From assembly GCF_016278365.1 (NCBI RefSeq), contig NZ_JADQBZ010000018.1:1-64000 (forward strand): a stretch of DNA of 64,000 nucleotides. Direction: 5' to 3'. The stretch is from Methanolobus sp. (GTDB taxonomy: Archaea > Halobacteriota > Methanosarcinia > Methanosarcinales > Methanosarcinaceae). Positions 59,517 to 62,446 of this stretch are shown piece after piece. Numbering within the stretch: the first letter of the stretch is position 1; each line of letters begins with the position of its first letter. Position numbers and translations under genes: made by a program. The notes under the pieces were generated by a model. It worked only from the letters and a program-made list of their open reading frames with translations. It did not search any database and was not told the DNA's origin.

Positions 59517-59810
59517 ATGGCCACAGAAATGGAAAAAAGAGTTGCAGAGAAGCAAAACCGGATGCATGAGAAACGATTGAGTAATATTTGCCTGGTCTCT
59601 TCTCTCTCTTCTGATGAAATAATGGATCAGCACTTACCAACGGATAAAACTTCACAATGGTATAATGAGAACTGCATTGGGACCGACGAGATTCCTAAGA
59701 ATACTGTAATAGGCACTCGTGGAGGCACATTATTCTATACCCGCAATGGAAAAATAATGAGGTCCGAATCGTCTGTACAGGGAGCTCTTAAACTTACGTA
59801 TAAGAAGTGA
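59517..59810 (+). CDS. hypothetical protein
   Basis: A 97-residue frame. The N-terminus is polar and rich in Lys and Glu; the C-terminal part (NTVIGTRGGTLFYTRNGKIMR) could be a small beta domain. No SD is seen, but TAGTATAAATACC lies about 20 bases before the ATG, compatible with a leaderless transcript. I do not recognise it, and coding status is moderate. Confidence 0.4.
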   Translation: MATEMEKRVAEKQNRMHEKRLSNICLVSSLSSDEIMDQHLPTDKTSQWYNENCIGTDEIPKNTVIGTRGGTLFYTRNGKIMRSESSVQGALKLTYKK

Positions 59811-59921
59811 TTCGGATAGTTCACCCCAACCCGCATTTGTGTTTCCTGCAGCAAGTAGTGCTCAGGGAATCGCATATACATATCTAAACTGACTTCTCCT
59901 GCGATCAATTCGTGGAAATGG

Positions 59922-60311
59922 TTATTTCCAGTGTATGCGGTTCTGTTGTCCCGGTTTGTGTGCTCCAGGTGAATTTGAAGTTTCAAGTTTCTTAAGAATG
60001 TTATCCTTGTAAGCCTGTATCGCATCTGCAACAGTACCTTCAATGAAGGGTAAAACATCTATATTCTTTGCTGTGAGCATTGAAAAGGCTTTAGCTCCAA
60101 CACTCCCTGTAATGAGTGCATCTATATCCCTGGTTATGATAAGATTAGCTGCCTGGACGCCTGCGCCACTGGAAGCAGAAGTTGTTGTATTCCTGACACT
60201 ATCAAATTCCATAGAATCAGCATCTACAATGACAAAGTACAAACACCTTCCAAAATGGGGATCCACCGGTGAATCCAGACTGGCCGATAAGGCTGTTACG
60301 CATATCTTCAT
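59922..60311 (-). CDS. NifX/NafY-type dinitrogenase iron-molybdenum cofactor domain protein
   Basis: A 129-residue protein of the small NifX/NifB-C-terminal-like family: MKICVTALSASLDSPVDPHFGRC, then FVIVDADSM, then GAGVQAANLIITRDIDALITGSVGAKAF. Such proteins bind metal clusters; stand-alone copies are common in methanogens, with no fixed role. The last about 20 residues are polar and unstructured. It has no nif genes nearby. Confidence 0.8.
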   Translation of the reverse strand: MKICVTALSASLDSPVDPHFGRCLYFVIVDADSMEFDSVRNTTTSASSGAGVQAANLIITRDIDALITGSVGAKAFSMLTAKNIDVLPFIEGTVADAIQAYKDNILKKLETSNSPGAHKPGQQNRIHWK

Positions 60312-60497
60312 TTAGAATTCTCCATTTTACATGTTTCTATTGGCGTATATTAAGATCTATCTGTCCTCTCAAATCTCCATCATATTACTCATGTGAGAGG
60401 AAATATAAAAAGATATTTCAAAACCATTATATCACTTGGCACAACAATTAATCCTCGCTACAAAAAAGCCGCCTTCGGGCAGATCTGGTGATCATCA

Positions 60498-60743
60498 GTC
60501 AACTACCCATCCCCTAAAGGGAATGGGCTTGTGAAGACAAGTTCAGGTTGACTAGCCTCAGTAATTGTTTGTAAAGAACAAGAACTACGTTATCCCGGTC
60601 ATAACACCTACGGATGTAAATCCTAGTCTGTAGCTCTGTTGTATGTGATTAAACAGTTCTGATGGGTAGGAACAGTGTTGCATGCTTAACAAGCCAGGAT
60701 AACATTGGCGAAGGATTACAACTCCTAAACGGAGATAGACAGA
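60498..60743 (+). ncRNA. predicted IscB omega-RNA scaffold
   Basis: About 246 non-coding bases directly before iscB, rich in pairings: GTCAAC (60498-60503) with GTTGAC (60547-60552), enclosing CCCATCCC / GGGAATGGG and CTTGT-GAAG-ACAAG. Further stems are GGAT-GTAA-ATCC, GCCA...TTGGC and CTCC-TAAAC-GGAG. IscB omega-RNAs lie upstream of the gene with the guide at the 5' end, so the guide would be the 16-20 bases just before 60498. Position and pairings are seen; function is inferred from the family. Confidence 0.65.
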
Positions 60744-62000
60744 ATGTTAGTCTACATAATTAACAAACATGGAAGACCATTAATGTCCTGTTCGCCAGGG
60801 AAAGCAAGGAAACTGCTGAAAGCAGGAAAGGCTAAAGTTGTAAAGCGGGAGCCTTTTACACTACAGCTACTTTACGGTAGCAGTGGATATACACAACCCG
60901 TTGTTCTGGGAGTGGATGCTGGAAGCAAATTCATTGGTCTTTCTGCAACGACTGAGAACAAAGAACTTTTCTCATCGGAAGTACAGCTAAGAACAGATGT
61001 AACAGAACTGATATCAACAAAAAGAGAATTAAGGAAGACTCGAAGAAATAGGAAAACAAGATACAGACAGCCCAGATTCAATAACAGAACGAAATCAAAG
61101 AAACCAGGGTGGATAGCTCCGACTATAAGGAACAGGATTGATGCTCATCTAAAAGTGATCGAGAACATTCATAAGATACTGCCAATAACAGCCATTGTTG
61201 TTGAGACTGCTTCTTTTGATATTCAGAAGATCAGGAACCCGGATATTTCAGGAATCGAATACCAGGAAGGAGAACAGCTTGGATTCTGGAATGTCAGAGA
61301 ATATGTACTGTTCAGAGATGATCATACTTGCCAACATTGTAAGGGAAAATCAAAAGATCATATACTTAATGTCCATCACATTGAATCAAGAAAAACAGGA
61401 GGAAACAGACCAGATAACCTGTTAACCTTATGTGAAACATGTCATGACCAATACCATAAAGGAAAGATAACCCTGAACCTACAGAAGATCAATGGATTCA
61501 AGCATCAGACATTCATGGGTATAATGAGGAACTATTTGCTTAAGGAACTCAAAGCAAAGTATCAGGATGTAAGAAATACCTTCGGATACATTACCAAGAA
61601 TACCAGGATACAGAACAACCTGCCGAAATCACATCGAACTGATGCATTCTGCATCGCAGGGAACATTCGGGCAGAAAGACTTCCTTATTATTTCCTGCAA
61701 AAGCAAATGCGTAAGCATAACAGGCAGATCCATAAGACAAATCCATCAAAAAATGGCATACGAAAACTAAACCAAGCTCCTTATATAGTTGAGGGATTCA
61801 GATTATTTGACAAAGTACTCTACAATAATATCAAATGTTTCATATTCGGCAGAAGGAAATCAGGATACTTTGATCTCAGGACACTATCAGGAGAAATCAT
61901 TCATCGTTCAGCTAAATGCAAAGAACTTATATTATTGACAGCCAGACGAACACTACTTATGGAAGTAAAATGGAGTGACGCAATTCCTCCCATCCCCTAA
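60744..62000 (+). CDS. iscB: IscB RNA-guided endonuclease
   Basis: A 418-residue IscB, the nuclease type from which Cas9 descends. A PLMP domain opens it (GRPLMSCSPGKARKLLKAGKAKV). RuvC-I has D58 (GVDAGSK), followed by an Arg-rich bridge helix (REL..TRRNRKTRYRQPRF). RuvC-II has E154 (VVETASF). The HNH domain has zinc Cys C196/C199 and C230/C233 with H211/H212, N225 and H234. RuvC-III has H297 and D300 (SHRTDAF). All catalytic positions are intact, so both strands could be cut. A C-terminal part binds RNA and the target-adjacent motif. The start ATG follows the omega-RNA region directly; the stop lies inside the right-end hairpin. Confidence 0.9.
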   Translation: MLVYIINKHGRPLMSCSPGKARKLLKAGKAKVVKREPFTLQLLYGSSGYTQPVVLGVDAGSKFIGLSATTENKELFSSEVQLRTDVTELISTKRELRKTRRNRKTRYRQPRFNNRTKSKKPGWIAPTIRNRIDAHLKVIENIHKILPITAIVVETASFDIQKIRNPDISGIEYQEGEQLGFWNVREYVLFRDDHTCQHCKGKSKDHILNVHHIESRKTGGNRPDNLLTLCETCHDQYHKGKITLNLQKINGFKHQTFMGIMRNYLLKELKAKYQDVRNTFGYITKNTRIQNNLPKSHRTDAFCIAGNIRAERLPYYFLQKQMRKHNRQIHKTNPSKNGIRKLNQAPYIVEGFRLFDKVLYNNIKCFIFGRRKSGYFDLRTLSGEIIHRSAKCKELILLTARRTLLMEVKWSDAIPPIP

Positions 62001-62083
62001 AGGGAATGGGTTTCCTTGCTTAGTCTTTATGAAATGTGCTATTTGTAATGGTAATCTTTGCCGGATCTCTTATTCCTGCGAGT

Positions 62084-62422
62084 TTACTTTGCCTCCTCTA
62101 CATTCGCAAGAAAACCTTCCCCTCTTGGTGACAGCTGATACATCGCCGGTTCCGAATCCTTTACTTTGTCAATATACAGTGCATTTTCCAGCATGTCCAG
62201 ATGGAACTTTGACTCTGATCTGCTAAGGTTGAGTTTGTCACCGATCTCTTCTATGCTAAGAGAGCTGCCGTTCAGAGCTTTCAGGATCTTACGGCGTGTC
62301 GGATTTTGCAGGGTCCTGAGACCAATTGCATGATCTTCGGTAGGGTTTGCCTTTAGCTTTCCTTCCTCTTTTAATTTATTCATCCACTCATGTTTTTTCT
62401 TAGCAGGGTCTTCTCCGGTCAT
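62084..62422 (-). CDS. ArsR-type winged-helix regulator
   Basis: A 112-residue transcription regulator. The HTH core is LQNPTRRKILKAL, LSIEEIGDKLNLSRSESKFHLDMLEN and a wing (MYQLSPRGEGFL). The Lys-rich N-terminal stretch is unusual for the family. No Cys metal site is seen, so the signal is not a thiol-bound metal. I chose the ATG at 62422 because GGTGA lies 5 bases upstream; another ATG is at 62437. Repeats in its promoter suggest autoregulation. Confidence 0.75.
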   Translation of the reverse strand: MTGEDPAKKKHEWMNKLKEEGKLKANPTEDHAIGLRTLQNPTRRKILKALNGSSLSIEEIGDKLNLSRSESKFHLDMLENALYIDKVKDSEPAMYQLSPRGEGFLANVEEAK

Positions 62423-62446
62423 TTTGTCACCTTCCATCTTACTTAA

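What the first reader, a model, noticed from the sequence alone, without database searches (positions are those of the whole stretch)
60498..62025. Complete IscB element with its omega-RNA in an archaeal genome
IscB keeps all RuvC and HNH catalytic positions, is preceded by a 246-base structured non-coding region, and is bounded by a duplicated 22-base hairpin. The long-range pairing GTCAAC/GTTGAC suggests a pseudoknotted scaffold. There is no TnpA, so the nuclease may have been kept for a host purpose or moved in trans. The guide would be the host sequence just before 60498.
Basis: partly seen in the sequence, partly recalled or inferred. Interest (0 to 1): 0.7.

Follow-up and report, generated by a model that had tools for sequence, protein, structure and literature searches.

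The report
IscB transposon with guide RNA, archaeon
This is a complete small mobile element in a methane-producing archaeon, carrying a Cas9-ancestor nuclease (IscB) and its guide RNA; it is a known kind of element, but its exact ends, recognition motif, RNA pseudoknot, likely bacterial kinship and likely borrowed transposase could be worked out here.

Summary
Window 60498-62028 (1531 bp) is an IS200/IS605-type element: a HEARO/omega-RNA (RF02033, E 5e-32) followed by an intact 418-aa IscB (NCBIfam IscB, E 2e-112), in a Methanolobus-like member of the Methanosarcinaceae. Sister copies and an intact empty site for one of them in a related species give ends exact to the base and no target duplication. 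The left end is GTCAA. The right flank begins ATGAA, shared by nearly all copies examined in archaea and bacteria; it is the predicted target-adjacent motif (TAM).

Two corrections. GTCAAC/GTTGAC is a local nested stem; the covarying pseudoknot is 60620-60624 with 60712-60716. Lack of TnpA is normal for IscB; both ends resemble those of a resident TnpA-TnpB element, so mobilisation in trans is the better reading, although that TnpA is decayed in this genome.

IscB is under strong purifying selection (dN/dS about 0.08). It groups with IscBs of bacterial plasmids, apart from most other Methanosarcinaceae IscBs, which implies horizontal transfer. New member of a known kind; interest modest.

The parts
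60482..60497 (+). predicted 16-nt guide (host flank), GATCTGGTGATCATCA
   Evidence: Lies directly 5' of the omega-RNA scaffold; IscB guides are 5' and 16 nt suffice (PMC9640706). No transcript evidence.
60498..62028 (+). whole IscB insertion sequence, 1531 bp
   Evidence: Homology with two copies at unrelated sites runs 60497/60498-62033; the sister copy has an uninterrupted empty site with junction GGCAA|ATGAA.
60498..60722 (+). omega-RNA scaffold (HEARO, RF02033)
   Evidence: Rfam 152.1 bits, E 5e-32; 37 pairs with double-sided change in 16 relatives.
60498..60503 (+). GTCAAC: left end of the element and 5' side of the closing stem
   Evidence: Invariant GTCAA in all copies examined; paired with 60547-60552 in 16 of 16.
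60547..60552 (+). GTTGAC: 3' side of the closing stem
   Evidence: helix 1.
60506..60527 (+). left subterminal hairpin, 22 bases
   Evidence: Identical copy at 61989-62010.
60620..60624 (+). pseudoknot, loop side (AUCCU)
   Evidence: All five pairs with 60712-60716 covary.
60712..60716 (+). pseudoknot, 3' side (AGGAU)
60744..62000 (+). iscB, 418 aa plus stop
   Evidence: NF040563 E 2.1e-112; dN/dS 0.07-0.09 against sister copies.
61989..62010 (+). right subterminal hairpin; overlaps the end of iscB
62029..62033 (+). ATGAA, host flank: predicted TAM and insertion motif
   Evidence: Same motif next to sister copies, 14 of 16 G081 copies (TGAA in 16) and most bacterial relatives; part of the empty sites.

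Best explanation
A complete IscB/omega-RNA (OMEGA) insertion sequence of the IS200/IS605 superfamily. A single-strand (Y1) transposase acting in trans most likely placed it directly 5' of an ATGAA motif; the hairpins at both ends resemble those of a TnpA-TnpB element resident in the genus. The omega-RNA is read through the left junction, so its 5' guide copies the host flank. IscB with this RNA would cut any chromosome copy that still has the empty site (guide sequence followed by ATGAA); repair from the copy that holds the element would restore or spread it. The occupied site is spared because the guide is followed by GTCAA instead of ATGAA. Shown here: anatomy, ends, motif, RNA fold with covariation, purifying selection, kinship with bacterial plasmid IscBs. 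Inferred: transcription, guide use, cutting, homing and the trans transposase.
For: Rfam and protein models. Exact ends and empty sites. Same ends and mostly the same ATGAA in bacterial and archaeal relatives. RNA covariation including the pseudoknot. End of the own IS605 element matches the IscB end at 25 of 30 positions, next best place in the window 19; end hairpins two bases different in three genomes. dN/dS 0.07-0.09 at dS about 0.6. Own genome has no second guide-plus-ATGAA site within 3 mismatches.
Against: No expression or activity data. No empty site of this very insertion was found. The only Y1 transposase gene found in this genome is decayed, so the element may now be immobile. The TAM is deduced from insertion sites, and TnpA target and TAM cannot be told apart that way.
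Confidence: 0.85

Rival explanations
1. Domesticated nuclease: the element has lost mobility and the host keeps IscB and its omega-RNA for a purpose of its own, such as attacking mobile DNA.
For: Single copy, no intact Y1 transposase found in the genome, strong purifying selection.
Against: Intact ends and the same ATGAA motif as mobile copies; sister copies at unrelated sites; present in only 4 of 27 genomes of the genus beyond HNH fragments (own, G056, G049; G044 is an HNH fragment); the guide is simply the insertion flank. Selection on the nuclease is also expected under homing.
Confidence: 0.08
2. Dying relic: an immobile element whose RNA and nuclease are no longer used.
For: Resident TnpA decayed; no other copy in the genome.
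Against: Open frame, catalytic residues and RNA fold intact; dN/dS 0.07-0.09 against copies that differ by dS of about 0.6, so the window lineage was under constraint until recently.
Confidence: 0.07

Closest known systems
IscB-omega-RNA systems (OgeuIscB, PDB 7XHT; HEARO RNA RF02033)
   Same: PLMP-RuvC-HNH order and catalytic motifs; 5' omega-RNA of about 225 nt with guide 5' of it; nexus-type pseudoknot.
   Different: Shorter protein (418 against 496 aa); C-terminal 80 residues (TAM-interacting part) not aligned with solved structures; predicted TAM ATGAA against NNRR of OgeuIscB (PMC9640706).
IscB elements on bacterial plasmids (Cetobacterium, Finegoldia, Anoxybacillus, Natranaerobius)
   Same: 56-61% protein identity, same GTCAA end, mostly ATGAA flank, no TnpA alongside.
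   Different: Bacterial hosts and plasmids; here a chromosome-sized contig of a methanogen.
Methanosarcinaceae IscB elements (16 copies in G081)
   Same: Same family of host, same left end and (A)TGAA right flank.
   Different: Only 40-48% protein identity and a separate clade; many more copies per genome.
Resident IS605-type TnpA-TnpB element of Methanolobus
   Same: Subterminal hairpins and right-end sequence nearly the same, 25 of 30.
   Different: Carries TnpA and TnpB instead of IscB, and sits next to a different target sequence (T-rich).

Membership tests
IscB RNA-guided nuclease | Passes the curated IscB protein model | tested here: met
   NF040563 375 bits against 175.
IscB RNA-guided nuclease | Split RuvC and HNH catalytic residues intact | tested here: met
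   D58, E154, H211/H212, H297/D300.
IscB RNA-guided nuclease | C-terminal TAM-interacting domain | tested here: inconclusive
   C-terminus conserved among relatives but not aligned with solved IscBs; AlphaFold model too poor.
IscB RNA-guided nuclease | Guide-directed cutting next to a TAM | not testable with these tools
   Needs a biochemical or plasmid-interference assay.
HEARO / omega-RNA (RF02033) | Covariance-model match over the gathering score, 5' of iscB | tested here: met
   152.1 bits against 83.
HEARO / omega-RNA (RF02033) | Conserved fold with compensatory changes, with pseudoknot | tested here: met
   92.8% of cells paired, 37 pairs with double-sided change; pseudoknot helix 5 of 5 pairs.
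HEARO / omega-RNA (RF02033) | Transcript with 5' guide | not testable with these tools
   Needs RNA sequencing.
IS200/IS605 superfamily element | Subterminal hairpins and insertion next to a short fixed motif without target duplication | tested here: met
   Hairpins; exact empty site of a sister copy.
IS200/IS605 superfamily element | Y1 transposase TnpA in the element (autonomous members only) | tested here: not met
   None in the element; the genome's only Y1 match has three stops. It is therefore a non-autonomous, tnpA-less member, as most IscB loci are.

The most novel reading that the evidence does not exclude
In polyploid methanogens an IscB element related to those of bacterial plasmids acts as a chromosomal gene drive: the nuclease repeatedly converts empty chromosome copies, which keeps it under strong purifying selection at very low copy number without a working transposase of its own, and it borrows the TnpA of TnpB elements for its rare moves.
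Probability: 0.2. Interest if true: 0.5.

Novelty: new member of a known kind. Interest (0 to 1): 0.3.

Why it matters
It is a well-bounded archaeal IscB system with a predicted guide, a predicted TAM (ATGAA), a pseudoknotted RNA, an intact empty site for a sister copy and a plausible trans transposase. That makes homing by an IscB testable in an archaeon. As a kind of system it is known: IscB/HEARO loci of archaea are on record (PMC9755519, PMC12988326).

Tried and rejected
Pseudoknot through GTCAAC/GTTGAC: rejected, a local nested stem. Empty site of the window insertion itself: not found; genomes with the left flank (G056, G044) continue into another gene, and those with the right flank lack the left one. 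Guide-plus-TAM near-matches in relatives: the 1-mismatch site in G044 and the 2-mismatch site in G056 lie at what looks like the same conserved place, on a strand whose frame holds stops, with surroundings unrelated to the window flanks; taken as chance. Viral contigs: only HNH-sized fragments. AlphaFold model: pLDDT 40, not used for any claim, so no fold search was run. One paper search was malformed.

Full report
What is there. The window holds an intact IscB gene at 60744-62000 (+), 418 aa. It passes the NCBIfam IscB model at more than twice its cut-off and matches Pfam RRXRR and HNH and solved IscB structures. Directly upstream, 60498-60722 is a full-length HEARO/omega-RNA at E 5e-32, the only Rfam hit in the 64 kb. 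The genome has one IscB and one HEARO.

Ends. DNA homology between the window and the two G056 copies, which lie at unrelated sites, runs 60497/60498-62033. One G056 copy sits at the 3' end of a deaminase-like gene. A related species (G044) carries the same flanks uninterrupted, 97% identical, with junction GGCAA|ATGAAGG and no base duplicated or lost; the own genome also has that locus uninterrupted, at 81%. That copy is 1531 bp, as is window 60498-62028. In the relative G081, all 16 copies examined start GTCAA[C/T] and are followed by TGAA (ATGAA in 14), with unrelated flanks beyond. Joining the flanks gives long open frames straight through the junction in three of them (L100, L102, L103), and other genomes of that genus hold two of the sites uninterrupted at 95-98%. 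Bacterial and other archaeal relatives have the same left end, mostly with ATGAA at the right. So ATGAA is flank and not element, and is the predicted TAM and insertion motif (TTCAT on the transposase strand).

RNA. An alignment of 16 omega-RNAs supports 56 pairs in 10 helices: 92.8% of cells paired and 37 pairs with double-sided change, against 36-42% paired when the partners are slid. GTCAAC/GTTGAC (60498-60503/60547-60552) is the closing stem of the 5' domain, paired in all 16, one pair covarying. The pseudoknot is elsewhere: 60620-60624 with 60712-60716, all five pairs covarying. It corresponds in position to the nexus pseudoknot of the OgeuIscB omega-RNA, where a hairpin loop pairs with bases downstream of the nexus stem (PMC9640706). 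The stem was picked by scanning candidate partners for that loop, so its score is somewhat favoured by selection; the series AUCCU/AGGAU, CAUC/GAUG, CUUC/GAAG, CCUC/GAGG is nevertheless hard to get by chance.

Guide. The IscB guide is the 5' part of the omega-RNA and 16 nt are enough (PMC9640706). The predicted guide is therefore 60482-60497 and the predicted target that sequence followed by ATGAA. In the own genome the only match within three mismatches is the occupied site, where the motif reads GTCAA and differs at two of five positions. This fits protection from self-cutting.

Transposase. No TnpA is in the element, and the only Y1 match in the genome has three internal stops. This is ordinary: IscB/HEARO loci are only sparsely associated with TnpA (PMC9755519). 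A TnpA-TnpB element of the same genus has end hairpins two bases different from those of IscB. Its other end in this genome, next to the decayed TnpA and an open TnpB frame, matches the IscB end at 25 of 30 positions, the best place in the whole window, the next best being 19. Intact Y1 genes exist in G056 and G044, though the copies read there belong to other TnpB elements. I infer mobilisation in trans; it is not shown.

Selection and kinship. Between the three Methanolobus copies dS is 0.58-0.66 and dN/dS 0.07-0.09: old divergence under strong constraint. In a maximum-likelihood tree the Methanolobus trio groups with bacterial plasmid IscBs (Cetobacterium, Finegoldia, Anoxybacillus, Natranaerobius) and a Bacillota MAG, away from the main Methanosarcinaceae clade (support for the wider group 91/90, short of the tool's mark for firm forks). 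Holding the trio and the main Methanosarcinaceae clade together is rejected (p-AU 2e-49), though the group was named after the identities were seen. The MAG's assignment is unchecked; the plasmid records are complete sequences. Transfer between bacteria and archaea is the simplest account; its direction is not proven.

How it most likely works. Retention and homing: RNA-guided cutting of the empty site, repaired from the copy that holds the element. For TnpB of the same superfamily, retention and a gene drive in multicopy plasmids have been proposed and tested (PMC11870625). That related methanogens are polyploid is from memory and not tested here; it would give such a drive room to act on the chromosome.

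Verdict. A confirmed, complete, well-bounded member of a known kind. IscB/HEARO systems of archaea are already on record (PMC9755519; PMC12988326), so the finding is useful and testable but not surprising.

Noticed in passing
window 59517-62437: The element sits at a synteny break: homology of the left flank to G056 and G044 stops at 60489, 8 bp before the element, and continues there into another gene, whereas in G055 and G040 the 97-aa gene (59517-59810) lies directly next to the ArsR gene (62084-62437).
   Followed up: partly
L116, L117, L119, L120-L122 (G081): Stand-alone omega-RNA elements of about 390 bp without iscB, each with its own guide flank; their right flanks read GTGA-like instead of ATGAA. 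At least 19 HEARO hits in that genome (the listing is capped).
   Followed up: partly
L195 4282, L196 4288, L198 4292; G081 copies L098, L101, L104, L107, L110: The insertion motif ATGAA (ATGAC in L198) often is the start codon of the downstream gene, so the element lands exactly between a gene and its own leader (3 of 4 plasmid copies, 5 of 14 G081 copies).
   Followed up: partly
L038 (own genome C8:13625-13942) and own genome C5:90936-90957: Remnants of an IS605 element: TnpA with three TGA stops next to an open TnpB frame, and a lone end hairpin CCCATACCCTAAAGGGTATGGG.
   Followed up: yes
G029:C1:774839-776041 and G029:C1:1287168-1288376: Otherwise full-length IscB frames with a single internal TAG in a Methanosarcinaceae genome; from memory, TAG can be read as pyrrolysine in this family.
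   Followed up: no
L167 (G044:C1:925902-925922) and L172 (G056:C2:3589-3609): The window's guide plus ATGAA has a 1-mismatch match in G044 and a 2-mismatch match at what looks like the same place in G056; probably chance.
   Followed up: partly
L197 (Natranaerobius thermophilus plasmid pNTHE02, 4272-5498): A relative of this IscB on an 8.7-kb plasmid, taking up about a sixth of it.
   Followed up: no
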